64,000 nt of DNA. It comes from an uncultured Ectothiorhodospiraceae bacterium (GTDB taxonomy: Bacteria > Pseudomonadota > Gammaproteobacteria > Nevskiales > Oceanococcaceae). Shown one piece after another: positions 3,634-28,625 of the stretch (the stretch's first letter is position 1; each line of letters starts with the position of its first letter). The notes under the pieces were generated by a model. It was not told the DNA's origin, made no database searches, and saw only the letters and a program-made list of their open reading frames with translations. The stretch is from contig CAKZQS010000014.1 of NCBI GenBank assembly GCA_937141935.1, forward strand, positions 1 through 64,000, written 5' to 3'. The position numbers were made by a program, and so were the translations under genes.

Positions 3634-3671
3634 GTAGTCCCCCGATGTCAATCCGTCGTGACATATCGCAC

Positions 3672-4114: not shown

Positions 4115-4117
4115 AGC
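4090..4117 (+). other. dif-like XerCD recombination site, probable prophage boundary
   Basis: Contains TGTATATTATGT, identical to the central region and inner XerD arm of the Escherichia coli dif site, followed by AAAG in place of TAAA. The XerC-side arm is only weakly similar, as in many phage attachment sites. Over the 28-base dif length I count 18 identities. It lies exactly where phage genes end and a chromosomal gene with a different style begins, consistent with an attR produced by XerCD-dependent inovirus integration. Confidence 0.65.
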
Positions 4118-4223
4118 GCAGAATGAGTCTGATAGAGCACAGCCAAGCCCGGGGCCCTCGCCTTGCACACGGCTTTGGGGGCCAAATTGGCCTGGTACTG
4201 ATTTTTACGATTGCGTGTCGGCC

Positions 4224-4241
4224 GTATTTCGCGTGAAATAC
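4224..4241. promoter_or_regulatory. Short inverted repeat upstream of lipoprotein gene
   Basis: A perfect 7-base inverted repeat (GTATTTC, four-base loop, GAAATAC) about 40 bases before the start codon of the beta-helix/cytochrome lipoprotein. It could be a regulator-binding site or a leader hairpin. No family of operator was recognised. Confidence 0.35.
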
Positions 4242-4281
4242 TGTTCACGAATACGGATGGGACCTCCTGGAGAACCTGACA

Positions 4282-7200
4282 ATGTCCAAGCTTCATGCAA
4301 GCCTGCTGGCTATTGCGGCCACGGCGATGCTGGCGGCCTGTGGTGGCGATTCTTCCTCTGGCGGCGGCTCGGCGCTGCCGGATGGCAGCGCCGCCGGCCG
4401 CGTCATTCGCATCGACCCCGGCCCGGGCGCCACCACCAAGATGGTGCTGGCCATGATCGACGCGCGCCCTCAGGACGTCATCGAATTCGGCCCCGGCTAC
4501 TTCGAGTTTGACTCGGGCATGCAACTGTCGAACACGGAGAACGTGCTGATCCGTGGCGCCGGCATGAACGAGACGGTGCTCTCCTTCAAGAACAGCGGCT
4601 CGCAGGAAGGCTTCCTGGCCACCAACGTGCGCGGCGTCACGATCGAGGACCTGACGGTGCTCGACTCGCCCGGCGATGCCTTCAAGCTGCAGGGCGTGAA
4701 CCACGGCACGCTGCGCCGCGTGCGCGCGTTCTGGTCCAGCGGGCGCAATACCGCCGACGAGGACACGGTGACGGCCGACAACTATCAGGAAAAAATGATG
4801 GTTGAGTGCACGGACCCGGCGCGGCATAACCCGGCCAACCCCAATCCGCTGGAAATGGATACCACGTCGCCGGACTACAACGTCAGCGTGGCCTCGGGCC
4901 GCTACGGCATTTACCCGGTGAACTCGCAGAACATCCTGGTGGAATTCACCGAGTCCATCGGGGCCTCGGATGCCGGCATTTACGTGGGCCAGACGGATAA
5001 CGCGATTATCCGCAACAGCCGTGCGGCCTTTAACGTTTTCGGTTTTGAAATCGAGAATGTGCGCGGCGGCGAATATGCCGACAACCTCTCCGAGTGCAAC
5101 ACCGGTGGTTTTCTGGTCTACGACCTGGACGGCCTGACCCGCTACGGCAAGCGCACGCGCATGTACCGCAACGTCGCGCGCAACAACAACACTTACAACT
5201 TCGCCGAGCCCGGCAGCATCGTGTCGAACGTGCCGCGCGGCGTGGGCATGATCACGCTGGGCTACGACCAGATCGACATTTTCGACAATACCTTCGAAAA
5301 CAACGGTACCGCCGGCATCGTGCACACCAGCTACGAGCTCTTCGGCGAGCCTGGCGACAAGCGTCTGGACATGTACACCGAAGGCGTGCACATCTTCAAC
5401 AACATTTTTGTCAATAACGGCAATGACCTGCCGCAACCGGATTACGCGACCATCATCGCGACCGAGGGCGGCCAGGTCACCTCGGCCTTCCCGATGCTGG
5501 TGGGCCTGAAGATCGCCGCCTCCGGGGATGAATACCGCGGCGGCCACATCATCTGGGATGGCTACCTCGACGAGCTGGATGCCGACTGCCCCTACCCCAC
5601 CGATGACCAGGGCCAGCCGATCCCGCAGGACGAGGACGGCAAGCCGATCCAGGGCAACCAGTACCCCAACCCGGATTGCCGCTACAACGCCTACAAGTTC
5701 GACAGCAACGGCGAGCGCATCAAGCCCAAGTGGTTTGCCTCCTGTATCGCCGAGAACAACCAGTTCGCCGACGACAGCCTGGCCTATGCCAACTTCAACG
5801 GCACCGAAGGCCTGGAGCTGCTGCTGGCCGCGCCGAACGTCGATGGCGACGTGCTGATCGACCAGGTGACCTCGCTGCCCGCCTTCGCGGCCGACCTGGA
5901 CATCAGCCCGCACCGCTGCGAAGAGCAGTACGGCGCCACCCTGCCCCCGCTGCCGCCGATCGTGATTCCGCCCTTCGAACCGTCCGGCGCGCTGGATCCG
6001 GCCCCCTCGCAGGCCACCATCAACCGCCTGTGCAACGCCGCGGTGCCGGCCGGCCAGATCAATGCCGAGGCCTTTGAGGTCAACTGCCCGCGTCTGGACC
6101 AGTACGCGCTGTTCAGCGACCCGCAGGATCCGCTGAGCATGCCCAATGGCCGCGGCACGCCCTTCGCCCTGAACAGCAAGCTGTTCTCGGACTTCTCCAC
6201 CAAGTACCGCGTGGCCTACATCCCCGAGGGTGAGCAGGCGATTTACCGCGACGGCCAGGACAGCGACAACGCCACGATCCTGTTCCCCGTGGGCACCATC
6301 GTCGCCAAGACCTTTGCCTTCGCCGACGAGACCAACGGCACCGAGGAAGCGGCGGAAACGCGCCTGCTGATCAAGCGCCAGCAGGCCGACGGCAATGTGT
6401 ACTGGAGCGGCCTGGAGTACATCTGGACCGAGGAGAACGGCGAGCGCGTGGCCGTGCTGACGCAGGAAGGCGGCACCGCCTCGGTGAGCTGGGACTACAC
6501 CGACGTCGACAGCGGCGTACGCCACCAGGGCAGCACGGACAACTACCTGCTGCCCAACGCCAACCAGTGCAACAGCTGCCACAGCAACGACGACGCCGAG
6601 ACCGGCACCGCGCCCATCGGGCCCAAGCCGCGCAACCTCAACCGCCCCTACGGCACCGAGTCGCCGCTGCCCTCGGGCCAGGCCAACCACCCGGTGGCCG
6701 GCGTCAACCAGCTGATCTACTGGTGCCAGAACGGCCTGATGAAGAACTGCCCGGATTCCATGGAAGTGGACCCGCAGACGCAGTACGTCACCAACGTCGA
6801 GCGCAACCCGGTCTTCAACATCCCCGGCGACTCCGGCTTTGCCGAAGGCTCGGACGAGGACATCGAGGCGCGGGTGCGAGCCTACCTGGAAATCAACTGC
6901 GCGCACTGCCACAACCCGCGCGGTCTGGCCCAGAACACCGGCTTCTACCTCGATGTGTTCCGCCCGGTCGACGATACCTACGGTATCTGCAAGGGCCCGA
7001 CGGCCAGCGGTACCGAGGGTCGCGGTGGTCGCGAGTTCGACATCGTGCCGCAAAGCGCGCCGGACTCGATCCTGCCCTACCGCATGGGCCCCGAGGCCGA
7101 CACCCTGGCCGCGCGCATGCCGCCGTTGGCCCGCAGCCAGGTGCACACCGAGGCCTTTGACCTGGTGACCGACTGGATCAACAACGTGGTGGACGAGACC

Positions 7201-12923: not shown

Positions 12924-13220
12924 TCCCGTGCATCGTTTGGCACCTATGTCTCGCAGCCCAAGCGCTACGCATCCGAAGCCTCACAGCTCACCTTGGAGGT
13001 TCTGCGCGCGATCATATTAGCGCTCAATGACAGCGCCGATGAGCTGCTATTTGATCCGTCCGAGCGAGGCCCCAAAAGCCGCGAGCTCAAGCTTCAGTTT
13101 GAGGCCGTCTCACAGCTCGACTTCAAGGACAAAGAAGTCATCCGCACTGTGATCGACAGCCTACTTCTGCGGCACGATACCCAGCGCCGGGCACAGAAGT
13201 CAGCCCAGTTGCACGGCTGA
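12924..13220 (+). pseudogene. Remnant of an XRE-family regulator (3' part)
   Basis: The frame reads SQPKRYASEASQLTLEVLRA, then IILALNDSADELLFDPSERG and a helical C-terminus. This matches the second half of common XRE regulators (SQxxRYExGxSQPTLEVLRAIALALxVSADELLFD). The helices before the recognition helix are missing: upstream in frame there is a TGA and no start. An internal TTG might allow a shortened product without DNA-binding capacity. A decayed gene beside the toxin locus. Confidence 0.65.
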
Positions 13221-13304: not shown

Positions 13305-13952
13305 TCACAATCCTGCCTCAAGGTTGAGCTTCTTCCTATCTTGCAAGAGCTCACCAAATCTACCTGAATCCAGTGCCTCGATGATTTCATCGTAAATAGC
13401 TATTTTCTTCAAGTTGTCCCCGGCGTTAATTTCGGTGGCAGCGCTTACGGTCCTCCTTAGATTAGAGATTAAATCTCTCGCTTCATCTTCCCTGTCCAGC
13501 AAGATTAGGGTTACAACTCGATCATATTTCAGCATCGGCTCTTCAAAAAACTCCATTTCGTAAAAAAATCGCTGAATAGAGTCGATTTCGTCAAACCAAG
13601 GAATAATGGTTGCTTTTAGAGTTTCTAAAACCTCTGCAAATGTCCTTAATGAATCTTCACTAGACGAGACTCGCCATAAATCGCCCTCATCGCCGGATCG
13701 ATGCAGTCGGCGGCCCATATAATATCCAGAAAACGGGTTCGAGTAGAAGGTGCAAGTCAAGTTCACAAAATAATGAAGGTAAAACCCGTCATTTCTATTT
13801 GGGTCAAATGTCACTTGATCTACAAAATTATCTCTTACTCTATAAAACCCCAAGGCTGACGCTCTCAGAAAGCCAGCCTCACTAAGAAAAGGCTCAATAG
13901 ACCGATCCAATCCGCCAATAATTTCTTTTCTTATTTTGCTTCGTGTTGCCAT
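13305..13952 (-). CDS. Probable immunity protein for the Rhs toxin (DUF4304-like)
   Basis: 215 residues, predicted soluble, acidic, aromatic-rich. The N-terminal pattern (IEPFLSEAGFLRASALGFYR, then a VDQVTFDPNRND strand and FYLHYFVNLTCTF) resembles the DUF4304 fold often found beside polymorphic toxins. It starts 1 base after the toxin gene stop and is transcribed with it. Its base composition is clearly AT-richer than the surrounding genes, as is usual for horizontally exchanged toxin/immunity cassettes. The immunity role is inferred from context; the DUF4304 link is a by-eye resemblance. Confidence 0.65.
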   Translation of the reverse strand: MATRSKIRKEIIGGLDRSIEPFLSEAGFLRASALGFYRVRDNFVDQVTFDPNRNDGFYLHYFVNLTCTFYSNPFSGYYMGRRLHRSGDEGDLWRVSSSEDSLRTFAEVLETLKATIIPWFDEIDSIQRFFYEMEFFEEPMLKYDRVVTLILLDREDEARDLISNLRRTVSAATEINAGDNLKKIAIYDEIIEALDSGRFGELLQDRKKLNLEAGL

Positions 13953-13953: not shown

Positions 13954-16900
13954 TTATCTTACGTGAATGAAAACTTCGATTATGGGAATCTTTCTCCCGT
14001 GCCGCTGCTCAAAATGAGCCAGAATCCTTTTCTTCTTGCCAGAAGAAAACCCCCGGCCCGTTTTTAAATCAATAAGAGCGGCAATCTTGTTCTTGTAATA
14101 GACCTCCATATCAACGCCTACAGAGCCCTTTTCTCTCTTATATCGAGCCTGTTGTCCGTTTTCGTGCCGGAACACTTCCGCTTGAATCTCAACATCTGGC
14201 AGTGGCTTATAGCGGAGCAACTTATCCTCTAGTCGCTTATGCGCAGCCGTGCCAAAGGAGCCCTTATTTTTGTGCGGTTCGCCAAGCTCAATAGTTTCCT
14301 GTACTGCGCTCAACAAGTGATCCAACACAAAATTCCCAATAACCCCAAAATCACTTGGGGGCCGCCCGAACATCAGCCGGTTGAATGCCGATCTACCGGC
14401 AAAGCTCGCACCGGCATTAAAGGTCGTGACCCCAACGCTAAACCCCGAGATTTGACCAGCAAGGAATGTATCGCCGCCAGGGTCAGTGAAGAGAGTTGGC
14501 ACATTCCCCGCGTAAACATATTTGTGCAAGCTTGACGGGTAGCTTTCCACTCCAGGGTGCGGGTCCAGACTTGTGAATCGTCCAAGGCTAGGGTCCATGT
14601 ACCGCGCACGCAGATTGTAGTGTGCGAGTTCCTCATCAAACTGTTCGCCAGCGAAGAGATAATCGTTGTCGGTAGAACCGGTTTGCTCCAGGAGTTCGCC
14701 GAAGCTTTCATACAGGTAGCTGTCTGATATCTCGCCAGTGGCGTCGGTCAGGGCGCGGGTGGTGCCCAGGGCGTCGTAGTGGAAGACGTGGCTCTGGCCG
14801 CTGCTGTGTTGGGTGAGCAGGTCGTTGCCGTAGGTGTAGCTGGCCAGCACGTTGCCCCCGGCATCGAGTACGTCGGTGACCTGGGCGTAGTCGCGCAGCG
14901 GGTCAATGACGTAGTCGATCCTCTGGCCGTTGACGGTCTTGCTGTGGCGGATGCCGTCGTGGTCGTACTCGAAGGCCAGGGTGTCGGCTGGTGTGGTGGC
15001 GCCGATCAGGCGGTCGCGGCTGTCGTAGCTATAGGTGGTCAGGCCTTGGGGGCCGGTGACCTGCAGGGTGTTCCCGTTGGGGTCGTAAGACCAGGTGCTG
15101 AGGGCTCCGGCCTGATCCTGGCTCAGCAGGCGATCATTGGCGTCGTAGCTGTACTGGGTGAGCAACTCATGGCCACCCTGCCTGCAACGCGGAGTGCAGC
15201 GGCTCTGGGTCTGGCGATTGCCCACCTTGTCGTAGGTCCAGACGGTCTCGGTATTGCCGCGGGCCGTATCGGTGACAGTGGCGCGGATCAACCGGTCGAG
15301 TTGGTCATAGCCATAGTCCACCTGCCGACCGTCGAGATCTTCGATGGCCAGGCGCTGGCCGGCTCCATCCAGCGTATAGCGCTGGCGGTTCAGCAGCGCG
15401 CCGGTGGCGCTGAGGGCGCGGACTTCGATGGGGCGGTTGCGCTGGTCGTAGTCGGTCTCGGTGCGGCTGCCGTTGCTGTGGTCGATGCGTACGGTGTTGC
15501 CGACGGCATCGTAGCTGTAGTGCGTCGTGCCCTGGGCATCGGTGACGGTCTGGCGGCGGTTGGCGGCATCGAAGGTGGTGCTAACGGTGCCGCTGGCCGA
15601 GGTGTACCCGGTGCGATTGCCGGCGGCGTCGTAGCTGTGCTGGGTACTCTTGCCGTTCGGGTAGTCGATGCGGGTCACGCGATCCCGTGCGTCGTGGCTG
15701 TACTGGGTGGTGCCGCGATGGTCAATGACGCTGGCCACAAGGCCGGTGGGCGTGTAGGTGGTCACAACGACCTGGCCGTCCGCGTAGCTCTCGCGGATGC
15801 GCCAGTTGTTGCTGTCGTACTCGAAGCTGCTGCTGGCCCCATTGAAGTCGATTCGCTGGGTGCGGTTGCCTGCCGCATCGTAATCGAAGTGCTCCACCTG
15901 CCCAAGCGGTAGCGCACGGCTTTGGACGCGGCCGGCGGCGTCGTAACTCCACCGCGTCACGCGCCCCGCCGCGTCGGTTTGGCTGACCTTGTTGCCAAGC
16001 TCGTCGTAGGCGTAGCTAGTGCGCTGCCCCAACGCGTCGACGACTGCGCTCAGGTTGCCGAGCGCGTCGTACTCGTATTGCGTCACCCGGCCGTTGGGGT
16101 CTGTTTCGCTGACGCGGCGGCCCAGCGCGTCGTAGCTTGTTTCCACGCTGGTGCCATCCGCAAATTCCGTGCGAATCAGGCGGTCGGCGGCGTCGTAAAT
16201 GAAGCGCGTAGTGCCTTGGGCGGTGGTCATCGTGGACCGGTTGCCGCGCATATCGTAGGCGTAGCTGACGCTGTGGCCCACGGCGTCCGTGGTGCTTGCA
16301 AGACGACCCGCCGCGTCGTAGCTATGGAGAGTACGGTTGCCGTTTTCGTCAATTTCGGCCGTAAGCTGGCCGGCGGCGTCGTACTCGCGAAGCGCACGAG
16401 GGTTGTCGCTATCGTCCTCGGGCGTGGCGTCCGGATAGAGCGTCGCGATGAGCCGATTAGCCGCATCGTATTGCATCCGCGTGATGCGCCCGGCCTTATC
16501 AATGTAGGCAACCTCATTGCCGTTGGCGTCGTACTGCCACTGCTCGCTGCGGCCATCGGGGTGGCGGGTGCGCGTACGCTCCCCACGGCGGTTGTAGTCG
16601 TGCTCGGTACGCAAGCCACGGGCATCGACCTCGGCAACAATTCGATCCAGGGCGTCGTACTCGGTCACTGTGGTGTTGCCGAGGGGGTCCGTGGTCTGAA
16701 CCAGGCGCCCCTTTGCGTCGTAGTCGAAGGTGGTGCTCTCTATGGCCTGGCTACCGTCCGCCAGTGTGCGAGTCACCTGTTCGCTCCGTACCCAGGTTTG
16801 CTTGCCGTCGTAGCCGTAGCGTGTGACACGGCCGTTGGGCGCGCGCTCCTCGATCTTGCGGCCGAAAATATCGTACAGGTACTGCGTTTGTTGCCCGACC

Positions 16901-19900
16901 GCGTCGCTGAAACTCGTGAGGTTGCCCCCTGTGTCGTACCCGAAGCTTGTACGGGCGCCTAAGGCGTCCTCAATGCTGCGCAGCGGGCCCGCGCGCCGGC
17001 GGAAGTCGTCGTTCACAAATTCGCTACGGCTGGTCACGCTGCCGTCCGGGGCAATTTCGCTGATCAGTTGGTGATAGGCGCTGTAGGTGTAGCTACGCGT
17101 ATCCCCCGCGGCGTTGGTTTCGCTCAGGGCATTGCCGTAGCCGTCATAAGTCCAGCTTTGGGTACGGCCCAGCGCATCGGTCCGACTGAGTTCATAGCCA
17201 AAGTCATCGTAGGTGCGTGTTGTCGTTTCCCCCAGGCTATTGGTTTCACTCAGGATGTCGCCCCGGTCGTTGTACACGTACACGGTGGCGTTGCCGCGGC
17301 GATCCGTTACGGTTTGCGTGCGGCCGGCAATGTTATGCGCAAGATCCACACGCTGCCCTTCGCCGTCTTCGGTTGCGATCAGTCGCCCGTCATCGTCGTA
17401 GAAATTGCGCGCCACCCGCTGTCCGAGCGGATCGAAGACTTCGTGGACGTAATGCCCGACCAGGTACGAGAATTGGGTGGTATTCCCGAGGGTATCCGTC
17501 GCGGCAACGAGGTCGCCTGCCGCATCGTAGCTGTAGGAGCGCTCGCGCCCGTCCGGAGCCCGCAGTGAAACGATCCGGCCTTGGGCATCACGCACGAACT
17601 CCACGCGCTCGCCATTGCTGTGCGTAATCCCATCTGCCCCGAAGGTGACACTGTTGCCGTGTACATCCTCAAGCCGCTGCAGCGTGAAGCCTTGGTGCAG
17701 CTCATAGGCCACGCCATCCTCGGCGGTGTAGCGATACTCGTCGGGGTCGACCGGGTCCTCGGGTCGGCCTGCATCCACAAGGTGCCCATCAACCAGTTCC
17801 AGAATGCCGTAGGAGGTTTGCTCCAGCTGGCCGCGCGTACCTGGCAGCGGGTCATAGACCAATGCGACCGTGGTGGCCGGCGCGCCTTGCTGGCACTCGG
17901 GTTCTGCGCGTGCGCGGAACTGCTCCACGATGCCGTCGGGCAAGGTTACGCTGACGGTGCGCTGACCGCTGATGGGCTTCACGCAATAAGTCGGCACAAC
18001 AGCGCCTTGCGATTGAACATTCCAGCCCAGACCGGCGGCGCGCCCCTCGCTGACCCGCACAGATTGGTAACCCACGCTCCACCCGTAACCGAAGTCCAGG
18101 GCTTCGTTACGGCGCCGGCTGTCATAGGTGCGTACGACCGTGATGGGGAGTCCCACCATCGGCACAGTGAGATCCTCGAATGTCATCGAGAGATCACCCA
18201 CCTTCATGGCGCCATCTATCAGCACGCCAGCGTCGGCGGCGCGGACATTGCCCGACGTGTCGGTGGCCTGCAACAGGATGCGATATTCGCCGTTGAGCAT
18301 CAGCGTGGGGTCTAGCGGTGCGATGCTCTGTTCGGCGAACGCGCTTCCTCCTTCCGCGAGCAGCTGCGGCGTGCCTTTGGGGTCGCCGTCGTAGAGAAAG
18401 AGCTGCCAGCTCGCCACGTCATCACCCAAAACTTCGCCACGGATAGACGCTGGCGCGGTGATCGTCGCGTTCTCGACCGGCTCAGTCAGGCGCACCGTGG
18501 GTGCCTCTTGGTCATTGGGGTCGCGCACCCAAAGAGTCTCCGTCAGCTGCACGGTGTCATAGGAATCCTGCACCGCAACATTCAACGCATAGCTGCCAGG
18601 TTCTGCCAGGCTTAACCTGGCGCGCAGCGCAGCGTCGAATTCCAGAGGCGCGCCGTCCAGCGTTGCCGTGGCGGACACCGGCCCCGCCGCATATTCGACA
18701 CCGACCTCGAGGTAAATCTGCTGCCCGGGGTCGGCTGGCTGAGGCAGCGCCTGCAACTGGGCCGTCAAGCTCGTTGACGCGGGCCACACCTGCAGAGTCC
18801 AACCCTGCTCCACGAAGCTCGCACCATCGTCCACACGGACCAGGAAGTCGAAGCTCCCGGCCGTGCTCGCCGGCCAGGACATGCGACCCGTCGCATCGAT
18901 CGATGCCCCCGTTGGCGCTGACATCAGTTGGAACGCCAGTGGGTCCCCATTGGGGTCTGTCGCCTCCACTGAGTAAGCGTATGTTGTGCCCTCGCGCACA
19001 GTGGTCGCAGGCCGGCTGAGGATGGTTGGCGGGACGTTGCGCCCTTGTTCGACTACCTCCAGCGCATAGCTTTGCTCGGCGATGCCACCACGGTTGTCAT
19101 CGACCTGAATCGACACGGTATGGACTCCTATGTCCGCGGCCTGCGGAGTCCACCGGATCAAGCCCGAGGCGTCGATCGACATGGTCGTTGGGTGCTGTAC
19201 CAAACTCGGCGTCAGCACGTCACCATCAGGGTCCTCGACGCCGAGCTGATAGTGATAAAAGGCGCCCGCGGCAGCCGTTAGCGGCGGGCTGCTGACAATC
19301 GTCGGAGCCGTATTGGGCGGATGCACGACCAAGTCATATCGCTGGGTGGCCGAACCGGCACTGGTGCTGACGCGTACCGCGACCTTGTGCAAGCCTGCCT
19401 GTGCAGCTGCTGGTGTCCAGCGCACCGTCCCTTGGTCCAGCGCCATCTGTGCCGGGCCCTCGATGAGCTCGAAAACGCCGCCATCCGCGTGTTCGGCGGA
19501 AACGGTGTAGCTGTATGGCTGCTCGGCAACGGCCTCCAGGGGAGGCTCGCTCACGATTCGGGGCGGCATCGCACGCGCTTCGACATCGAGCGCAAAGGTC
19601 GCGCGTACCGGTTGTTTGCCGTCGCTGACGCGAACCTCGAGGTCATAGCGACCCTCAACCGCAGGGGTCCACTCAAGCCAGCCGGTTGACCGATCAATGG
19701 ACATGCCATCGGGGCCGCTCAACAGCTCGTAGCTGAGGGCGTCGCCATCCGGATCCGAGGCCTGCACCTGCTGCCGCCAGAGTTCGCCGACATAGGCACG
19801 CGCAACCAGTGCACCCTCGATAACAGGCGGGGCGTTCGGTACGTCGGCGACATAGGCGGTAAAGGTGGTGTTTCGCCATGTGCCGGAGATGGCGCGCAAG

Positions 19901-22900
19901 CGCACGTCGAAGCTGTGCGACCCGGCGTCGCTGTAGCCCGTTTGCCAAGTGATTTCACCACTTTGCGGGTCTATTTTTGCGCCAGGCGGCGCTTTGTCGA
20001 AATGGAAGTAGGTCGAGTCGTTGTCGTCGGCCGACGCAGGCGTATGCCAGTGGCGAATGACCCGTGTGCGTAGCTCCTCCCCTTCCTCAATGGATGGGAC
20101 AGGATCCATCGTGAGGTAGTAGGCACCGGGATTGAGCGTCGCCCCCAGTAGCATCCGCATCTCGTCGAAGGCATCCGCGTGGTCGCGTATGCGCAGATGC
20201 GTACTGTGTGCCGAAACGACGTCGTTATTGTTCTGGCACTGTTCCACCGGTGCGAGCGGGGTCACTTTTGCGACCACTTCCCCGAAGAAGTCCCCGGGGA
20301 GATTCGCATCCAGTTGCAAGCTGACCTGCTCGCCTATCGCGAGAGCAGGACCTTGCCGCGCCGCAATCGGATCCGCACCGGACGCCGGATCCGCGGCGAA
20401 CAGCTCCAACCAGAATCCCGTTGGCATGTCTGCAGTGCCGCGATTGCGCACATTGACTGTTAGTGCGCCCGTATAGTCGCCTGCAGGTGCGTCGATCCAA
20501 AGATCCGGCAGACCCGAATCGAAGTCGCGGGCGGCGGGGGCGAGGATCTGGTCTTCGCCTCGAAGCTGCCATGATGGTTCCGCTGTCGGGTTGACCTGAA
20601 GATTCCCAAGGATGGCTTCAGGTTGTTGCGATCCCTGAAGGCGTACCAGCGGCAAACCATCGCGAAGTGCAGTCGCGCTGTAGCGTGAAATCCCGATCGA
20701 GCGACTCGCGGTGTTCGCGACCTCGAGGTGGCCGTCGCGGTCCAGGTCCGCCAAGAGCGGCGCTACACGGGGGCTCCCCGATGCGTACTGCCCCCGAGCG
20801 ATTTCAAGGCCAGTCGCGCCGTCCACTACCCGGCTGTAGGCGCCACGGTTGGCAAAGAGCTCCAGCCGATTATCCCCCTGAATGTCGGCAACGACGGCAG
20901 CATGGTGATCTCCCCTTCCTGCGTCATAGCGCCACCGCAGTCGACCACTAGCGTCATATAGTGAGTCGTCGCCGGCAATGAACACGTCCAATTCGGCAGC
21001 GCCGTCGAAGTCCGCGATGTGCGGTTGGCCGATGTACTCGATCGGCTGCGGCGAAAGTATGGTTGTCCCGAATGCATCCACGACGCTCCAGTGGGCTTGT
21101 GCCCCGCCATGGCTTCCGCGTTCCACGATAACGACTTCGGGGCTGCCGTCGCGATCCAGATCACCCACGGCCATATACGCGGCATCCGGAACGTGGTCGC
21201 CAAGCGACTGGGCCTGCCAAAGCAGGCTCCCGTCGTTGTTGTAAGCGCGGCCAGCATGGAGTAGCTCGGCGTTTCCATCGCCAGTGATGTCGATCGCGTA
21301 GCTTGGGCTGAGCCAGGCATTGGTGGGCAAGTCCGTCGGAGGCGCTGCCAGGGTTGCGACAGTGTTGCCCGATCCATCAAGAAACACGTGGCCAACCAAT
21401 ATTTCTGGCAAGCCATCACGATTCGTGTCGGCGATCGCTACCCTTACCACCTGGTTTGCGGTCCGTATGGGTTCAGCCGTGGACTCCCAAAGCAGACGCC
21501 CGTCGTCCGTGCTGATCGCAGCGACACGGCGAGTCGCACGCTGGACCACTACGAGATCTGGAACACCGTCCGCATTAATGTCGGCGATCGCCGGGTAACT
21601 ATAGGGCGCGCCTTTGCCCTGCGCGTTGAGTGTGCCCGCGTCCATCTCAGCGTTTTCCGTCGCGTCGTAGACGTTGAAGCCGCCGCTTACGTCCTGAACT
21701 ATTAGCTGAGCGCGATCTGCCGTTGTAATGGCGCCGTCGCCATTCGTGTCGCTCAGTGGCGAAGCGAGGAGATGATATTTATTGTACCTTCCACCGAGAC
21801 CTGTGTTACGCCATTCCGAGAACGATACAGCGGCACTCCCTCCTACTCCTCCGCGTTGGCAGAGATAATCCGTTTCGGGTAGGCGGCGGTCGTACAGGGT
21901 ATCTACCGAGCCCTGCCCCCAAGATAACCTTACGTTGTGCTCAACGTTAGCCGCAATGCCACCGTAAGTCAGGTAGGAGACCAAGTCTGGAGCGCTCGAT
22001 GTTAAATCGATCGAGAAGTTCTCACGTATGTTCGGGTCGGTGAAAACTACACTGCCAAAGTAGCTTTGACGGTGGCGAGCGACCGTATAGGCGGGCTTGC
22101 TAACAACCTCGGGCGGTTCATTGGGGTAGTCCGAGTAAAACGGGAACCACACAACCGTCGAGTTGCCGTATTGGTCTTCCGCATGAACGATTACGAGCGA
22201 AAGCGTATCCCAGAAGTCTGCAGTCGACGCCCACGTTAGTTCACCGGATACGGCGTCGATCTGCGCGCCTAGAGGCGCTTCCAACAAGCTGTATGTGAGA
22301 TCAGACGCCGGGTCCGCATTGAGTTGTAAACGAACGCGTGACTCTTCGCCAATCACTGCGCGCACGGCCGTATCGTGTCCCGCCGAAAACTCCGGTGGCG
22401 AATATCCCCCTGCTACGTGGACGACGAATTCCTGTGAGGCGACCGCACCGCTCAAATCCTTCACCGAAATAGTGAATGAATGCTGCCCACTATCGGAGGG
22501 CTGCGGTGTAAAGACAAACCTGCCGGAGTAAGGGTCCAAAGACGCGCCGTCGGGGCCCTCGTCAATGGTGAAGTAGTGACCATCGCCAATATCCGGGTCG
22601 TCTACAACAACTTGGTAAACGTAATGCGCGCCTGCGGCCACTTGCGCAGGTGGCGTTGACTCGATAACAGGCGCGTGATTAACGTCTCGGACGTTCACGA
22701 CAAAGGTTTGAAACGCGCGCCCCCCAGCGTCGTCGTTCACTTCCAAGGTGACTATAGGGACGCGTTGGCTGTTGTTCTCGGTGTCACATTCTGAGGTGGT
22801 CTCCCCAACTACAGAAAGCACGATTTCGCTTCCATTCGATTGGGGGTTTACAGGAAGCGGAGCGGGCACAACAACGGACTGGCCGGCGTCAAGCCCTTCC

Positions 22901-25900
22901 ACCTCTACAGTTGTGACGGGACTATGCGGCGCTTCTGGCCAATGAGCTTCGAGTCGACCGGGGCTCGTGGCGCCAGATAAGCCGCGATTGGAAATCGATG
23001 CTAAGAGAATGTCCGCAGTCGTGTCGGTAAGAAGCTCAACGCTATCAATCGCGAGATCCGCCAAATGCGCATTACTGCCCGACTTCAGCGTCGTCGCGAA
23101 CATTGTCGAGGCGAGCGCCCTACGAAGCGGGCCCGACTCCGGCCCGTAACCGTCGACCGCCGATGTCCATGACCATACGAGGCCGCCGGTTTTGAAGGCC
23201 GTCTCAATGTAGGGGATCACATAGGCGTTGCGGTAATACCCTTCTTCGGCGAGCTTCGAAACATCGACATCGCATCGAGCGTATCCCGTGCCGTCAGCAT
23301 AGTAGCCCCTGCCTTCAGCATCAGTGCCGATCGCCCAAGCGCCGTTCGCACACCGCAGATTGGTGTTGGTGATGACATTGAGCGTAAAACTCCCGTCAAT
23401 CAGACGGCGCTGGAGGTCGGCGAGCGTTTCGCCATTTATCGGCCCGCCTTGGGATGGTTCGTCCGCGATGAGGACCAAATGCTTGGCGGCGGGGTCGCGA
23501 AACTCGAAGTTGTCGAGGGTGAACTGGAGAGCTCGCAGCCCGTTTTCCGCTCCCCCACCACCTTCGGTGATATTCGCATCGAAGGTATGTGCGTAGAGCT
23601 GGTCAATGCTCCCAAAGAGGTCTGGTCCGAACTGGGCCGCGCCGGGGGTGCCCCCGAAACCCACGAGGCCCCAACGGTTTTCCGTAGGCGCGATGCCGAT
23701 CCCCTGAAGAAGGAGGTCGGAGTGCAGACTCGCCATCGCTTCCGATACCCAGGGCCATGTCTTTACATTTGACGCTGAGCTGTCAACCACCATCACCGCG
23801 TCCACGGCTGGCGGCCGCGAGAACCTGTCGTCAGTTGAGCGTGCGCAATAGGCGTGTGGCAGGGTGTTGCCGCCGACAAAGGCGTCGGTTGCAGACCAAG
23901 AAATCAATCCTTGGTCATCGATGGTCATGCCCTCGGGCGCTGACCGCAGTGTGTAGGTGAGCGTGTCACCGTCCGCATCGCTAGCTTGTACCGCGTAGGC
24001 GAAGTGATCGCCTTCCGATATCGATCCGGGCGGAATGCTCGTGATGACAGGTGCCGAGTTACTGCTGACGATCTCGATGGTGAAGCTGTGGCTGGCAACA
24101 TCGTCGTTACGGTCGGTCGCCGTGATCGTGAATGCCCGAACGCCGGTGTCGCCTGCCGCGGTTTGCCATTCCAGTAAACCCGTTAGCTCATCGAGAACGG
24201 CGGCGGCGGGCGCCTCGACGAGACTGAATTGAAGGATATCGTCGGGATCCGGGTCACTTGTCGTGAGCTGATACTCCAACAATGCTCCTGCATCAATCTC
24301 ACTCGGAGGTGTGGATGTGATCAAAGGGGGCGACCGGTCGCGCGAAACCACCAAGGTCGTGTCGGAGGAATTCCCAGCGCGATCAACGGCGCGCAGGCTA
24401 ATGTCGTTCTGTCCGAAATCCAACGGCACAATTGCATGGAAAGTCAGAGCGGCGTCGACTTCGACTGCCTCGCCGAGGATGCTCAGTTCTGCCGGCTCGT
24501 CCAACTGGCCGGCCACGGTCACTGTCGGCGCATAATGGCTCGAGCCATCTGCGGGAGTTGTGACGCTGATGGTCGGTGCGGTGGTATCGACGTGTATCGC
24601 GCCGGTGGTCTCCGCCCAGTTTCCCGCCTGATCCTGAACTCTGAACGAAAGTCTGTTCACGCCCTCCGTCAGATCGCCGGTGGGACGGCACATAGCTCCA
24701 TCTGTTGACGGCGTGCATTCGAAGTCCGCGGGGGAGCCGTCGACCGTTGCTGCGAGCGTGCCGACGTCCACTCCACTTAAGCTATCCGTGTAGGTCAGCT
24801 GAAACTCAGGTCGGCTGGTGTTCAGTAAATCCCCAAACTGAGGCGCGACGAGTGTCAGGATTGGCCCTGCGGTGTCGATGGTGAAAACGTTGGTCGCACG
24901 ACCGACGTTGCGTGCGAAATCCTCTACCGAGGCCGCGACACTCAGATGTCCATCAGGCAATGGACTTGAGAATTGGCATTGGATTACGGAGGCCTGAAGG
25001 GCGCATGTCGCATTTGCGGCCTCGTTGTTCACCTCAAGCTGCAAGGTGTCCAGGTTTGGGCCCGATGTGGCATCGCTAACGGCCACCACAATGTCTGGTT
25101 GAGGGTCGCTGAGCAGTGCCCCGGCGCTAGGAGACGTAAAAGCAATAGTGGGATTTTGCGTGTCGACCGTAAGCTCTTGTATGGACGTTGCCGTGTTGCC
25201 TGCGAGGTCACGAACGCCCACGCTGAGTTCTCTCAGTCCGTCGGCCATCGGCTCGCGGAGCGTGCAAGTGGCGCCGCCAGAGGAACTCTCACAGGACGCG
25301 CCGACCACGATGCCGTCGGCCATGAGCACCAAGCTCTCAATGTCAACGCCGCTGCCGTCATCGCTGAAGGCAATTACGACAGTAGGCGTCGGGGTGTTGG
25401 TTGGAGGCTCCGCGGCGGGCTGAAGAATTTGCAACTTAGGCGGCGTGGCATCGATTGTGACCTGCCGAGTGAGTGCAACCTGATTGCCTGCGCGGTCTAG
25501 CGCCTCGACCGTGATCGTTCGCTCGCCATCAGCGAGGTCATCAGTTAGAACGCAGGAGTAGAGCCCATCGCTGCCTGCGCAGTTCGCGGCCGCAGCGCGG
25601 TTGTCAACGAATAGCGCGGGTGACTGCTCCGAAACCCCGCTTGTGTCATCTGAGACGGCAATGCGAATTTCGGGTCGGCGCGTTGCGAGGTTTTCAGCAG
25701 CTTGGGGTGCCAATATCTCAAGCGCGGGTGGCGTCGCGTCGATCGTGAACGCACGTGGACCCGCCTCGCTCGTATTGCCAACGAAATCGGCAACCCGCGC
25801 GGTGAGGTTGTAAGGTCCGTCAGCGAGTACGGAAAGTGGCGCGCACGTTGCGCTGTCGGCTTGGGCGCCGCAGGACCACGACTGCCCCCGATCGTCCGTC

Positions 25901-28314
25901 AGGCTCAGTGTGCCCAAATCAAGCCCGGTCCCTCCATCCGCGTAAACCAGTTGCACCGCAGGCTGCCGAAGTGCGAGGTGGCTTCCTTCGGCGGGGTCGG
26001 TGATCGCAATGTCCGGCGGTGTACTGTCAACGAGGATGGTCAACGTGGCCTGCGCGGCGAGGCCAACCCGGTCCACGGCCGTCGCGATAAAGCGGTTAGC
26101 TCCCTGAGGCAGATCAGAGATTGGAACGCAGTTCGCGGCATTGGGAGTCAGGTTGCACGTGAGCGATATCGAATGATCCGGGGAACGGAGACTGAATCCG
26201 CTCGTCGCGATGCCACTGTGCGCATCTGCATATTCAACCCGGATTTCTGGGCGCGCCCGCGCGACGGCACTACCGTCCGCGGGGCCGGCGAAAACCACAT
26301 GCGGCGCGGAGCGATCCCATGCAAAGGTGCCCTCAAGGGATCGGCTCACATTGCCCGCGCGGTCCGCTACGGACGCTGTAAAGCTGTGAATGCCGTCCGG
26401 CAATCCCGGCGGGGGTGTGCAATGCGCTGATGAGCTGTCCGCAGCCACGCTACAGTGCATCGGCGTTGCACCGGCCACGACCACCGTTAGGGAGGCCGGG
26501 ACAATCTCTGTTGCTTCGTCGGACAACGCAAGCTGCACCTGAGGCGCTTGGCTCCATGTGCCAGGGGGCGGCGAGACCAGAGCCACGCTCGGTGCTTTGG
26601 TATCGACGACGAAGCTGGCTTGTGCCGGTATCGCAGTATTTCCTGCAACATCTCCAACTGCGATTTCGACTTCGACCGGACCGTCCGATAGATCCTCAAG
26701 TAGTCCACAGGCGAAGATGTCGATGTCACGGCGTGTGCATTCGTGGGCAACCTCGCGATTCCCAATGCTGAGTCGGGACGTCGTGAAATCCAGGCCGCTA
26801 CCCGTCTCTACAACCCGTATCTCGATGGCTGGGCGGGGGCTGGCAATCGCGGCGCCTGCCGCGGGCCGCTTTACTGACAGTTGTGGCGCGGTGGCATCGA
26901 CGAAGAAATTACTGAGCGATGGACTAGAAAGCTGTCCATCGGCCCCCCGCAGGATCGCCTCGAGGCTCACCGGACCTTCCGGGAATTCTTGCTGCGGTTC
27001 GCAGGAGATGGTCCCGCCCGCCGCGTCGACGGTGCAGGCCGCGGGATGCGGCGACCCGGCAACGCTGAGGACCAAGTCTTCGGGGGACACAACGCCGGAT
27101 GCACTGGTAAATCCGTATTGCAGCTGCGGGCGAGTCGTGCGTACGTAGCTCCCATCGCTCCACGACAAGAATTGCAGCGTTGGTGGTTCGACGGAGGCCG
27201 CGTTCAGCGCGAGATCCCAGATGCGGCCGGGGCTGCCCGGCCCCTTCCGTCGTATCTTTGTGAGTTCCTCCCCGCGAGTGTCGAATTGCCAGACCCATTG
27301 CGGGCTCGCCGCCCAAATCGTGCCGCCATTTGGCGCGGCCGAAAGCTGTACCAAGTCCCCTTTAAGTTTCGCGCGGAAGCTGCTTCGCATCGCGCCATCG
27401 GATTCGAGCACGAAGAGCGACTTTCCGTCTGCCGCCCAAATGTGGCTGTCCGAGGACTGTTCGAGGTGGGTATAGCGCGCCACCAGTTGGTGAGATGCGA
27501 CGCCATCCTGGGTATACCCAAGCAGCGCTTTCTTCGCCGCGACCCAAATCGTCCGGGTGTGTGCCGCGTAAGCGACCGCTCTCACCTCAGCTCGTTTGGG
27601 AACCTCGAGTTCAAATAGCAGCGTCCCGGTTTCGTCGTAGGACAGAACTTTGTGCGTCGTCGCAATCCAGGCCTGTCCTGAACTCGCGTCGTGGGCGGAA
27701 TCCACCACGTCGGCCGGCGTCGTGAATTGCCGCAGCAGTTCCCCGCCGACCGTGACGATGTAGACCTGATCACCGACGTATGCCCAGACGTTGCCATTGC
27801 GCGATATCTGCAGCTGTGCGTTCGGCGGAGAACTCTCGCCGTCGTGCCCATCGTCACGATCTTCATCATCGTCATCGTCATCGTCATCGTCCCGCTCATC
27901 ATCGCGGTCGTCCCTGTTACCGCCACGTTCTCCGCCGTCTCGGTCGTCGTCATCGCCTCGGTCATCGTCATCGTCACGATCGTCGTCATCGTCATCGTCC
28001 CGCTTGGCATACGCGATCTGCATCCCGAGCCGCATGGTCCAACGCACGCTTCCGTCGAGGGCGTGTTGCCAGAGCTCGCCGTCGCCGTATGTCCACACGG
28101 CCTCGCGCGCTTCGTCAACCGCTATCGCCCGCCGTTGCCGATGCGTATCGATCTGCCCCTGCAATTCTCCGGACTCTGCGGAGTGCCAAGCGAGTAGCTT
28201 GTTTTCGACCAGCCAAAGGGTGTCCTCGTCAGCGCTGGCGAGTGACGTCAACCCGGCGGAGAGAAGCCATAGAACACCGGCAGCGTTGCGCCGCAGTCCC
28301 GACGAGTGAAACAT
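13954..28314 (-). CDS. Giant Sec-exported Rhs/YD-repeat polymorphic toxin, 4786 residues
   Basis: Order of parts: signal peptide (LLSAGLTSLASA, 1-28); beta-propeller-like segments with an Asp/Arg-rich tract (106-160); ten Ig-like repeats of about 90 residues (to about 1250); cadherin/He_PIG-like repeats (ITSTPPSEIDAGALLEYQ); a VWA domain with MIDAS-like DSSAS (about 1503-1725) followed by a CARDB-like domain; FG-GAP/VCBS-like repeats with Ca-binding loops (DTNGDG, DINADG); a second CARDB-like and more He_PIG repeats; a DUF6531-like start of the shell (near 3370); dozens of YD repeats; the Rhs core motif (YMDPSLGRFTSLDPHPG) and PTLFTDPGG. The last 172 residues are the toxin tip, with GTAAHKRLED, VDMEV and LIDLKTG resembling a PD-(D/E)XK nuclease (Asp4735, Asp4749, Lys4751). 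It is followed by an immunity gene. Probably exported and surface-linked; mode of delivery is unknown. No VgrG or PAAR protein is nearby. Confidence 0.85.
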   Translation of the reverse strand: MFHSSGLRRNAAGVLWLLSAGLTSLASADEDTLWLVENKLLAWHSAESGELQGQIDTHRQRRAIAVDEAREAVWTYGDGELWQHALDGSVRWTMRLGMQIAYAKRDDDDDDDRDDDDDRGDDDDRDGGERGGNRDDRDDERDDDDDDDDDEDRDDGHDGESSPPNAQLQISRNGNVWAYVGDQVYIVTVGGELLRQFTTPADVVDSAHDASSGQAWIATTHKVLSYDETGTLLFELEVPKRAEVRAVAYAAHTRTIWVAAKKALLGYTQDGVASHQLVARYTHLEQSSDSHIWAADGKSLFVLESDGAMRSSFRAKLKGDLVQLSAAPNGGTIWAASPQWVWQFDTRGEELTKIRRKGPGSPGRIWDLALNAASVEPPTLQFLSWSDGSYVRTTRPQLQYGFTSASGVVSPEDLVLSVAGSPHPAACTVDAAGGTISCEPQQEFPEGPVSLEAILRGADGQLSSPSLSNFFVDATAPQLSVKRPAAGAAIASPRPAIEIRVVETGSGLDFTTSRLSIGNREVAHECTRRDIDIFACGLLEDLSDGPVEVEIAVGDVAGNTAIPAQASFVVDTKAPSVALVSPPPGTWSQAPQVQLALSDEATEIVPASLTVVVAGATPMHCSVAADSSSAHCTPPPGLPDGIHSFTASVADRAGNVSRSLEGTFAWDRSAPHVVFAGPADGSAVARARPEIRVEYADAHSGIATSGFSLRSPDHSISLTCNLTPNAANCVPISDLPQGANRFIATAVDRVGLAAQATLTILVDSTPPDIAITDPAEGSHLALRQPAVQLVYADGGTGLDLGTLSLTDDRGQSWSCGAQADSATCAPLSVLADGPYNLTARVADFVGNTSEAGPRAFTIDATPPALEILAPQAAENLATRRPEIRIAVSDDTSGVSEQSPALFVDNRAAAANCAGSDGLYSCVLTDDLADGERTITVEALDRAGNQVALTRQVTIDATPPKLQILQPAAEPPTNTPTPTVVIAFSDDGSGVDIESLVLMADGIVVGASCESSSGGATCTLREPMADGLRELSVGVRDLAGNTATSIQELTVDTQNPTIAFTSPSAGALLSDPQPDIVVAVSDATSGPNLDTLQLEVNNEAANATCALQASVIQCQFSSPLPDGHLSVAASVEDFARNVGRATNVFTIDTAGPILTLVAPQFGDLLNTSRPEFQLTYTDSLSGVDVGTLAATVDGSPADFECTPSTDGAMCRPTGDLTEGVNRLSFRVQDQAGNWAETTGAIHVDTTAPTISVTTPADGSSHYAPTVTVAGQLDEPAELSILGEAVEVDAALTFHAIVPLDFGQNDISLRAVDRAGNSSDTTLVVSRDRSPPLITSTPPSEIDAGALLEYQLTTSDPDPDDILQFSLVEAPAAAVLDELTGLLEWQTAAGDTGVRAFTITATDRNDDVASHSFTIEIVSSNSAPVITSIPPGSISEGDHFAYAVQASDADGDTLTYTLRSAPEGMTIDDQGLISWSATDAFVGGNTLPHAYCARSTDDRFSRPPAVDAVMVVDSSASNVKTWPWVSEAMASLHSDLLLQGIGIAPTENRWGLVGFGGTPGAAQFGPDLFGSIDQLYAHTFDANITEGGGGAENGLRALQFTLDNFEFRDPAAKHLVLIADEPSQGGPINGETLADLQRRLIDGSFTLNVITNTNLRCANGAWAIGTDAEGRGYYADGTGYARCDVDVSKLAEEGYYRNAYVIPYIETAFKTGGLVWSWTSAVDGYGPESGPLRRALASTMFATTLKSGSNAHLADLAIDSVELLTDTTADILLASISNRGLSGATSPGRLEAHWPEAPHSPVTTVEVEGLDAGQSVVVPAPLPVNPQSNGSEIVLSVVGETTSECDTENNSQRVPIVTLEVNDDAGGRAFQTFVVNVRDVNHAPVIESTPPAQVAAGAHYVYQVVVDDPDIGDGHYFTIDEGPDGASLDPYSGRFVFTPQPSDSGQHSFTISVKDLSGAVASQEFVVHVAGGYSPPEFSAGHDTAVRAVIGEESRVRLQLNADPASDLTYSLLEAPLGAQIDAVSGELTWASTADFWDTLSLVIVHAEDQYGNSTVVWFPFYSDYPNEPPEVVSKPAYTVARHRQSYFGSVVFTDPNIRENFSIDLTSSAPDLVSYLTYGGIAANVEHNVRLSWGQGSVDTLYDRRLPETDYLCQRGGVGGSAAVSFSEWRNTGLGGRYNKYHLLASPLSDTNGDGAITTADRAQLIVQDVSGGFNVYDATENAEMDAGTLNAQGKGAPYSYPAIADINADGVPDLVVVQRATRRVAAISTDDGRLLWESTAEPIRTANQVVRVAIADTNRDGLPEILVGHVFLDGSGNTVATLAAPPTDLPTNAWLSPSYAIDITGDGNAELLHAGRAYNNDGSLLWQAQSLGDHVPDAAYMAVGDLDRDGSPEVVIVERGSHGGAQAHWSVVDAFGTTILSPQPIEYIGQPHIADFDGAAELDVFIAGDDSLYDASGRLRWRYDAGRGDHHAAVVADIQGDNRLELFANRGAYSRVVDGATGLEIARGQYASGSPRVAPLLADLDRDGHLEVANTASRSIGISRYSATALRDGLPLVRLQGSQQPEAILGNLQVNPTAEPSWQLRGEDQILAPAARDFDSGLPDLWIDAPAGDYTGALTVNVRNRGTADMPTGFWLELFAADPASGADPIAARQGPALAIGEQVSLQLDANLPGDFFGEVVAKVTPLAPVEQCQNNNDVVSAHSTHLRIRDHADAFDEMRMLLGATLNPGAYYLTMDPVPSIEEGEELRTRVIRHWHTPASADDNDSTYFHFDKAPPGAKIDPQSGEITWQTGYSDAGSHSFDVRLRAISGTWRNTTFTAYVADVPNAPPVIEGALVARAYVGELWRQQVQASDPDGDALSYELLSGPDGMSIDRSTGWLEWTPAVEGRYDLEVRVSDGKQPVRATFALDVEARAMPPRIVSEPPLEAVAEQPYSYTVSAEHADGGVFELIEGPAQMALDQGTVRWTPAAAQAGLHKVAVRVSTSAGSATQRYDLVVHPPNTAPTIVSSPPLTAAAGAFYHYQLGVEDPDGDVLTPSLVQHPTTMSIDASGLIRWTPQAADIGVHTVSIQVDDNRGGIAEQSYALEVVEQGRNVPPTILSRPATTVREGTTYAYSVEATDPNGDPLAFQLMSAPTGASIDATGRMSWPASTAGSFDFLVRVDDGASFVEQGWTLQVWPASTSLTAQLQALPQPADPGQQIYLEVGVEYAAGPVSATATLDGAPLEFDAALRARLSLAEPGSYALNVAVQDSYDTVQLTETLWVRDPNDQEAPTVRLTEPVENATITAPASIRGEVLGDDVASWQLFLYDGDPKGTPQLLAEGGSAFAEQSIAPLDPTLMLNGEYRILLQATDTSGNVRAADAGVLIDGAMKVGDLSMTFEDLTVPMVGLPITVVRTYDSRRRNEALDFGYGWSVGYQSVRVSEGRAAGLGWNVQSQGAVVPTYCVKPISGQRTVSVTLPDGIVEQFRARAEPECQQGAPATTVALVYDPLPGTRGQLEQTSYGILELVDGHLVDAGRPEDPVDPDEYRYTAEDGVAYELHQGFTLQRLEDVHGNSVTFGADGITHSNGERVEFVRDAQGRIVSLRAPDGRERSYSYDAAGDLVAATDTLGNTTQFSYLVGHYVHEVFDPLGQRVARNFYDDDGRLIATEDGEGQRVDLAHNIAGRTQTVTDRRGNATVYVYNDRGDILSETNSLGETTTRTYDDFGYELSRTDALGRTQSWTYDGYGNALSETNAAGDTRSYTYSAYHQLISEIAPDGSVTSRSEFVNDDFRRRAGPLRSIEDALGARTSFGYDTGGNLTSFSDAVGQQTQYLYDIFGRKIEERAPNGRVTRYGYDGKQTWVRSEQVTRTLADGSQAIESTTFDYDAKGRLVQTTDPLGNTTVTEYDALDRIVAEVDARGLRTEHDYNRRGERTRTRHPDGRSEQWQYDANGNEVAYIDKAGRITRMQYDAANRLIATLYPDATPEDDSDNPRALREYDAAGQLTAEIDENGNRTLHSYDAAGRLASTTDAVGHSVSYAYDMRGNRSTMTTAQGTTRFIYDAADRLIRTEFADGTSVETSYDALGRRVSETDPNGRVTQYEYDALGNLSAVVDALGQRTSYAYDELGNKVSQTDAAGRVTRWSYDAAGRVQSRALPLGQVEHFDYDAAGNRTQRIDFNGASSSFEYDSNNWRIRESYADGQVVVTTYTPTGLVASVIDHRGTTQYSHDARDRVTRIDYPNGKSTQHSYDAAGNRTGYTSASGTVSTTFDAANRRQTVTDAQGTTHYSYDAVGNTVRIDHSNGSRTETDYDQRNRPIEVRALSATGALLNRQRYTLDGAGQRLAIEDLDGRQVDYGYDQLDRLIRATVTDTARGNTETVWTYDKVGNRQTQSRCTPRCRQGGHELLTQYSYDANDRLLSQDQAGALSTWSYDPNGNTLQVTGPQGLTTYSYDSRDRLIGATTPADTLAFEYDHDGIRHSKTVNGQRIDYVIDPLRDYAQVTDVLDAGGNVLASYTYGNDLLTQHSSGQSHVFHYDALGTTRALTDATGEISDSYLYESFGELLEQTGSTDNDYLFAGEQFDEELAHYNLRARYMDPSLGRFTSLDPHPGVESYPSSLHKYVYAGNVPTLFTDPGGDTFLAGQISGFSVGVTTFNAGASFAGRSAFNRLMFGRPPSDFGVIGNFVLDHLLSAVQETIELGEPHKNKGSFGTAAHKRLEDKLLRYKPLPDVEIQAEVFRHENGQQARYKREKGSVGVDMEVYYKNKIAALIDLKTGRGFSSGKKKRILAHFEQRHGRKIPIIEVFIHVR
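27835..27999 (-). repeat. Asp-codon tandem repeats inside the Rhs giant
   Basis: Runs of GAC/GAT codons interrupted by Arg and Gly encode an acidic tract of about 55 residues (e.g. RDDDDDDDRDDDDDRGDDDD). The trinucleotide repetition could change length by slippage while staying in frame. The tract splits a beta-propeller-like N-terminal region and might bind divalent cations. Confidence 0.8.
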
Positions 28315-28549: not shown

Positions 28550-28625
28550 TGGTGGGTCGTGCTGGGCTCGAACCAGCGACCAGCGGATTAAAAGTCCGAT
28601 GCTCTACCAACTGAGCTAACGACCC
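28550..28625 (-). tRNA. tRNA-Lys (anticodon TTT)
   Basis: 76 bases including an encoded CCA. The 7-base acceptor stem GGGTCGT pairs with ACGACCC, with the D-arm TAGCTCAGTTGGTAGAGC, anticodon loop CTTTTAA and T-arm GGTTCGAGCC. Very similar to the Escherichia coli lysine tRNA. Confidence 0.97.

What the first reader, a model, noticed from the sequence alone, without database searches (positions are those of the whole stretch)
13954..28314. 4786-residue exported Rhs giant with a multi-domain stalk and nuclease-like tip
Signal peptide, ten Ig-like repeats, VWA, CARDB-like and FG-GAP repeats precede a full Rhs shell and a toxic tip with its own immunity gene. No VgrG, PAAR or T6SS genes are nearby. 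This may be a self-contained, surface-anchored contact toxin, distinct from T6SS-loaded Rhs proteins.
Basis: partly seen in the sequence, partly recalled or inferred. Interest (0 to 1): 0.72.

Follow-up and report, generated by a model that had tools for sequence, protein, structure and literature searches.

The report
Giant exported Rhs-type bacterial toxin
This is one enormous, probably surface-displayed protein that most likely carries a DNA-cutting poison inside a hollow Rhs shell at the end of a long stalk, with an antidote gene beside it; it is a fresh and unusually large example of a toxin class already known, not a new kind of system.

Summary
Minus-strand ORF 28314-13954 (4786 aa) encodes a Sec signal sequence, a likely seven-bladed propeller with an Asp-rich insert, ten Ig domains at 96-residue spacing (nine with a Cys pair), He_PIG domains, a weak VWA match, FG-GAP repeats and a complete Rhs shell. 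A 172-residue tip follows, then one base later a DUF4304-like gene (P0002). The 98%-complete genome has no TssC, PAAR or other Rhs gene but has a type II secretin: a non-T6SS route is well supported, outer-membrane crossing is not.

Homology to other giants (33-38% identity over 1500-2000 residues) ends at residue 4614-4644. GC3 falls from 0.78 (shell) to 0.51 (tip) and 0.42 (P0002), the signature of a swapped toxin/immunity cassette. In another genome of the order a DUF4304 protein directly follows a Tox-REase-9 tip. The window tip shows similar motif order but no significant family match.

The claimed distinction from T6SS Rhs proteins is not new: Sec-exported Rhs toxins were described in 2012, bacterial teneurins in 2026. 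Verdict: new member of the Sec-exported polymorphic Rhs toxins. By-product: cyanobacterial relatives with this shell lack a signal peptide, and four sit beside a type I exporter.

The parts
28231..28314 (-). Sec signal sequence, residues 1-28 (MFHSSGLRRNAAGVLWLLSAGLTSLASA|DED)
   Evidence: Sequence: two Arg before a 12-residue hydrophobic stretch, AxA-type cleavage site; no dedicated predictor was available
27181..28230 (-). Residues 29-378: probable seven-bladed beta-propeller (W-motif blades starting at 32, 72, 175, 214, 255, 291, 332), no Cys
   Evidence: Pattern count; no Pfam family matches this stretch
27835..27999 (-). Asp-rich low-complexity insert between propeller blades 2 and 3 (residues about 106-160)
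24337..27180 (-). Ten Ig-like (Big_13 / Glucodextran_B type) domains, residues 379-1326; 18 Cys forming one close pair in nine of the domains
   Evidence: Pfam; 96-residue spacing; Cys count
23377..23799 (-). VWA-like domain (residues 1506-1646, DSSAS metal-site motif) lying inside an interrupted He_PIG domain
   Evidence: Pfam VWA E=0.0021, below cut-off
22756..23070 (-). CARDB-like segment (residues about 1749-1853)
   Evidence: Appearance only; no Pfam match
20695..21750 (-). FG-GAP repeats / calcium-loop propeller (residues about 2189-2540, DxNxDG-type motifs at 2189, 2245, 2296, 2385, 2523)
   Evidence: Pfam FG-GAP_3 E=9e-20; motif list
18775..20124 (-). He_PIG array (residues 2731-3180)
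   Evidence: Pfam; homologous to cyanobacterial and Lysobacterales giants
14473..18234 (-). Rhs/YD shell (residues 3361-4614) with DUF6531-like entry and Rhs_assc_core ending DPHPG-X22-DPGG (4584, 4611)
13957..14472 (-). C-terminal tip, residues 4615-4786: lead of about 60 residues, then a core with G-x3-H ... D ... DLK order resembling restriction-endonuclease-fold toxins
   Evidence: Homology stops here; GC3 0.51; no Pfam match; weak similarity to a Tox-REase-9 tip
13305..13952 (-). P0002, 215 aa, DUF4304-like candidate immunity protein, ATG one base after the tip's stop codon
   Evidence: GC3 0.42

Best explanation
It is a Sec-exported polymorphic Rhs toxin with its immunity gene. The protein crosses the inner membrane by the Sec route, folds in the oxidising periplasm (disulfides in the Ig stalk), and is probably taken across the outer membrane by the genome's type II secretion system or an unidentified route. 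The propeller, Ig, VWA and FG-GAP parts form a long adhesive, partly calcium-dependent stalk. The Rhs shell encloses the 172-residue tip, which is probably cut free by autoproteolysis at the DPHPG/DPGG site and acts in a neighbouring cell as a PD-(D/E)XK-type nuclease; P0002 protects the producer. Shown from sequence: the domain order, the signal sequence, the modular tip/immunity exchange, and the absence of T6SS and C39-type T1SS genes. Inferred: type II secretion, adhesion, autoproteolysis, nuclease activity, immunity.
For: Sec-type N-terminus. Nine Cys pairs in nine Ig domains and few Cys elsewhere, as expected of an exported stalk. No TssC, PAAR or C39 exporter in the genome, but a full-scoring GspD secretin of 575 bits against a cut-off of 351. 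Continuous 33-38% identity of the He_PIG-Rhs part to giants in Nostoc, Calothrix, Leptolyngbya and two genomes of the same order, ending at residue 4614-4644. GC3 step 0.78 / 0.51 / 0.42 for shell / tip / P0002 against 0.82-0.92 in host core genes. One-base gap between tip and P0002. In genome G012 a DUF4304 protein (52.8 bits) overlaps the end of a Tox-REase-9 tip (E=7.6e-5), an independent pairing of DUF4304 with a nuclease tip. Relatives carry different tips, including a NucA/NucB DNase. Autocleavage by two Asp motifs and REase-type tips are established for Rhs proteins (PMC8636562, PMC13018210, PMC3482391).
Against: The tip matches no family and has no detectable homologue in 369 genomes of the class, plasmids or viral contigs. 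Its similarity to the Tox-REase-9 tip is weak (108 of 3000 shuffles score as high; BLASTP finds nothing meaningful), and a loose nuclease motif occurs in 12% of shuffles. Two other DUF4304 proteins in the order (L058, L059) do not follow an obvious toxin tip. Structure models of the tip are uninformative (pLDDT 37 and 43). Type II secretion of a protein this size is unproven, and no exporter is linked.
Confidence: 0.62

Rival explanations
1. A giant adhesin or matrix protein whose Rhs shell and tip no longer work as a weapon, kept for surface attachment or biofilm cohesion.
For: About 70% of the protein is adhesion-type stalk; no exporter-linked delivery system; the gene is found in no other sampled genome of its family and few of the order.
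Against: An intact 14.4-kb reading frame, an intact DP..G pair, and a compositionally distinct, exchanged tip with an immediately following DUF4304-like gene argue that the tip is under use and turnover.
Confidence: 0.15
2. A polymorphic Rhs toxin as above, but with a tip that is not a DNA nuclease (for example an RNase, deaminase or membrane-active domain).
For: No significant family match for the tip; known tips of this class are very diverse (PMC3482391, PMC13018210).
Against: GxxxH ... D ... DLK order and the DUF4304 / Tox-REase-9 pairing in G012.
Confidence: 0.2
3. A T6SS-delivered Rhs effector whose machinery lies elsewhere in the genome.
For: Rhs genes are most often T6SS-linked (PMC8636562).
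Against: No TssC and no PAAR in an assembly estimated 98.3% complete, with positive controls ringing in the same searches; the N-terminus is a Sec signal, not PAAR; a stalk of more than 3000 residues.
Confidence: 0.02

Closest known systems
Sec-dependent ('T2SS') RHS polymorphic toxins (Zhang et al. 2012, PMC3482391)
   Same: Signal peptide, propeller/Ig/RHS repeats, variable C-terminal toxin (REase-fold clades included), downstream immunity gene
   Different: Much longer stalk with VWA and FG-GAP; tip and immunity protein not assignable to a named Tox/Imm family with significance
Bacterial teneurin-like proteins (PMC13018210)
   Same: Sec-exported, adhesive N-terminal domains including bacterial Ig, toxin inside a YD shell, paired DPxG motifs, downstream immunity gene, rare and scattered distribution
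   Different: No NHL domain next to the shell; stalk of He_PIG/FG-GAP type; SPase I-type signal in a Gram-negative rather than the lipoprotein signal reported for Gram-negative TLPs
Cyanobacterial plasmid giants annotated 'putative Ig domain-containing protein' / 'YD repeat protein' (Nostoc, Calothrix, Leptolyngbya, Tolypothrix)
   Same: Big_13 - He_PIG - Rhs order in the two scanned with Pfam (Nostoc N6, Tolypothrix), VWA in Tolypothrix; 33-35% identity over about 1900 residues and variable tips
   Different: No signal peptide; four of the loci carry a C39-type ABC transporter gene, and three of these also an annotated HlyD
WapA of Gram-positive bacteria (established knowledge; PMC12704120)
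   Same: Exported Rhs toxin with immunity gene
   Different: WapA is a Gram-positive wall-associated protein; no wall-binding domains here and the host is Gram-negative

Membership tests
Sec-exported polymorphic Rhs toxin | N-terminal signal peptide | tested here: met
   RR + hydrophobic core + ASA|D site; rule-based, no SignalP
Sec-exported polymorphic Rhs toxin | Complete Rhs/YD shell ending in Rhs-associated core | tested here: met
   PF05593 E=1.6e-115, TIGR03696 E=4e-15
Sec-exported polymorphic Rhs toxin | Variable C-terminal domain beyond a conserved boundary | tested here: met
   Homology ends at 4614-4644 with the main relatives; GC3 step
Sec-exported polymorphic Rhs toxin | Immunity gene directly downstream | tested here: inconclusive
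   DUF4304-like gene one base downstream; DUF4304 follows a Tox-REase-9 tip in G012; neutralisation untested
Sec-exported polymorphic Rhs toxin | Toxic activity of the tip | not testable with these tools
   Needs expression
Tox-REase-9 (PF15650) tip | Significant profile match | tested here: not met
   No PF15650 hit for the window tip at E<=1; only motif order and a weak pairwise score
DUF4304 (PF14137) | Score above curated cut-off | tested here: inconclusive
   22.4 bits against 23.2 for the protein; 24.6 summed over the open frame
Bacterial teneurin-like protein | FN-plug, NHL and YD-shell superfold | tested here: not met
   No NHL match anywhere in the protein; no such domain between shell entry and YD repeats
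TcdB/TcaC-type Rhs toxin | SpvB domain plus integrin-like propeller | tested here: not met
   FG-GAP present but no SpvB match
T6SS Rhs effector | PAAR domain / T6SS sheath in the genome | tested here: not met
   No PAAR, no TssC

The most novel reading that the evidence does not exclude
One lineage of giant He_PIG-Rhs toxins uses interchangeable export routes: a C39-peptidase type I exporter without a signal peptide in cyanobacteria, and Sec (with type II secretion or lipoprotein display) in Lysobacterales, while the shell stays homologous over nearly 2000 residues. The window protein would be the Sec/SPase I version.
Probability: 0.35. Interest if true: 0.55.

Novelty: new member of a known kind. 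Interest (0 to 1): 0.36.

Why it matters
How non-T6SS Rhs toxins of Gram-negative bacteria leave the cell and enter a target is an open question, stated as such for bacterial teneurins (PMC13018210). This gene sits in a genome without T6SS or a C39 exporter but with type II secretion, so one knockout of gspD would test a specific route. It also adds DUF4304 as a probable immunity family for restriction-endonuclease-like tips.

Tried and rejected
Tip homologues: none in plasmids, 369 class genomes (the single hit, in G329, is an unrelated frame) or viral contigs; PDB and PADLOC empty. P0002: none in plasmids or viral contigs. AlphaFold of the tip, 176 and 110 residues: pLDDT 37 and 43, so no fold search was run. 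A duplicate of the tRNA-Lys 3' end elsewhere in the window, as an attachment site: not found, so integrase-type insertion is not supported. Teneurin, TcdB/TcaC and T6SS membership rejected by absent defining domains. A strict nuclease pattern was not met by the tip. Literature search for DUF4304 as immunity: no paper held.

Full report
WHAT IS THERE. The finding is one uninterrupted reading frame on the minus strand, 28314 down to 13954 (4786 aa), with a G-rich ribosome-binding-site-like stretch before the ATG. It lies just downstream of tRNA-Lys (28550-28625) at the end of the tolR-tolA-tolB-pal-ybgF block, and upstream of PP2C and Ser/Thr-kinase genes. Profile matches leave no doubt about the main parts: RHS_repeat E=1.6e-115, He_PIG 1e-55, Big_13 9e-54, FG-GAP_3 4e-17, Rhs_assc_core 4e-15.

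DOMAIN ORDER. Signal sequence 1-28; seven W-motif blades from 29 to 378, read here as a beta-propeller with an Asp-rich insert (pattern only, no Pfam support); ten Ig domains 379-1326, spaced 96 residues apart; He_PIG domains interrupted by a weak VWA match at 1506-1646 (E=0.002) and a CARDB-like segment that Pfam does not confirm; FG-GAP repeats 2189-2540 with DxNxDG-type loops; He_PIG 2731-3180; Rhs entry and shell 3361-4614; tip 4615-4786. The Ig block holds 18 cysteines as nine close pairs in nine domains, while the He_PIG stretch next to the shell and the tip have none. That fits a stalk folded outside the cytoplasm.

EXPORT. The N-terminus has the three parts of a Sec/SPase I signal (no predictor was available). 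The assembly (3.57 Mb, 98.3% complete) has no TssC, no PAAR and no C39-peptidase exporter, each search having rung in control genomes. It has one GspD secretin far above cut-off. Type II secretion is therefore the most economical second step, but this is inference. No surface anchor was recognised, so 'surface-anchored' is not established.

THE TIP IS A SWAPPED MODULE. The part from about residue 2713 to 4614 aligns continuously, at 33-35% identity, with giants on plasmids of Nostoc, Calothrix and Leptolyngbya; the shell aligns at 37-38% with two genomes of the same order (G054, G012). The alignments end at 4614 in most cases and at 4628-4644 in three. GC3 is 0.78 in the shell, 0.51 in the tip and 0.42 in the next gene, against 0.82-0.92 in host core genes; the GC fall begins about 70 residues before the boundary, inside the conserved Rhs core. 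Relatives bear different tips; one is a NucA/NucB-type DNase. Distinct composition of the C-terminal toxin part is a known property of Rhs proteins (PMC8636562).

IMMUNITY AND ACTIVITY. P0002 starts one base after the tip's stop and is DUF4304-like (22.4 bits, cut-off 23.2; 24.6 over the frame). DUF4304 is rare in the order (4 of 85 genomes). In one of the other three, G012, the DUF4304 gene overlaps the end of an ORF that matches Tox-REase-9 (E=7.6e-5), an independent case of DUF4304 behind a restriction-endonuclease-fold tip. The other two have no obvious tip upstream. The window tip has a similar order of motifs (G-TAA-H, VD, DLK) but is not a demonstrable member: no Pfam hit, BLASTP nothing meaningful, Smith-Waterman score reached by 108 of 3000 shuffles. 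Nuclease activity is the best guess at perhaps 0.55-0.6. Structure models were uninformative.

DISTRIBUTION. It is the only Rhs gene in its genome. It is absent from the three other genomes of its family, and its Rhs-entry stretch is matched in 4 of 85 genomes of the order, its own included (one of these is a weak fragment), and in none of 397 others drawn from the phylum at E<=1e-20. In the one congener the tRNA-Lys is followed by an unrelated ORF. With the lowered GC of the whole gene (about 0.62 against 0.69) this points to horizontal acquisition, although no attachment-site repeat was found.

COMPARISON. Zhang et al. 2012 (PMC3482391) list 'T2SS/Sec-dependent' RHS toxins with propellers, bacterial Ig domains and ten REase-fold tip clades, and describe signal peptide - transglutaminase - RHS proteins, the architecture of the G054 relatives here. 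The 2026 teneurin paper (PMC13018210) describes surface-exposed bacterial YD-shell toxins with immunity genes and says delivery remains to be elucidated. The window protein works like both but lacks the NHL domain that defines teneurins, and lacks SpvB and PAAR. It is a new, very large member of the Sec-exported class.

A BY-PRODUCT. The cyanobacterial relatives have no signal peptide. In Nostoc N6, Nostoc UHCC 0926, Leptolyngbya and Calothrix a C39-type ABC transporter gene is close to the giant (annotated as a toxin-secretion ABC transporter in Calothrix; the C39 domain itself was checked only in Nostoc N6), with an annotated HlyD gene and a peptidyl-prolyl isomerase in the first three. A similar shell thus appears with two export routes. 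This is the most novel reading the evidence allows, and it was not tested further.

Noticed in passing
L025:842-6039, L042:2844-9442, L044:9059-9784 and 40290-45518, L047:5036-8763: Cyanobacterial plasmid giants (4500-7500 aa) with the same He_PIG-Rhs shell lie near a C39-type ABC transporter gene, with annotated HlyD and peptidyl-prolyl isomerase genes in three of the four, suggesting type I export of Rhs toxins.
   Followed up: partly
L025:5302-6039, L044:9059-9784, L042:8708-9442, L045:7869-8600, L047:32921-33685, L048:11218-12042: A gene of about 240-275 codons annotated as hypothetical directly precedes each of these cyanobacterial giants; the two tested (L025, L044) match no Pfam family. 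A possible chaperone or secretion partner.
   Followed up: partly
L044:31973-37486: Leptolyngbya locus carries two short displaced Rhs-core-plus-tip ORFs with small neighbours, like orphan toxin/immunity cassettes.
   Followed up: no
L057:1-923 (genome G012): Tox-REase-9-like tip (contig edge) overlapping a DUF4304 gene: evidence that DUF4304 is an immunity family.
   Followed up: yes
window 12939-13217, + strand: Open frame without stop that by eye resembles the C-terminal part of an XRE-type regulator, just beyond the immunity gene: a possible truncated remnant.
   Followed up: partly
L018 and L019 (genome G054): Signal peptide - transglutaminase - Rhs giant with displaced Rhs-core-plus-tip ORFs downstream; a second such giant (L020) ends in a NucA/NucB DNase.
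   Followed up: partly
window 27835-27999: Asp-rich low-complexity insert (38 acidic residues in 59) between two blades of the N-terminal propeller; role unknown, perhaps calcium binding.
   Followed up: no
L045:9333-42785 and L046:15826-45981: Rhs-containing giants of 11,150 aa (Anabaena cylindrica plasmid) and 10,051 aa (Rhizobium johnstonii plasmid).
   Followed up: no
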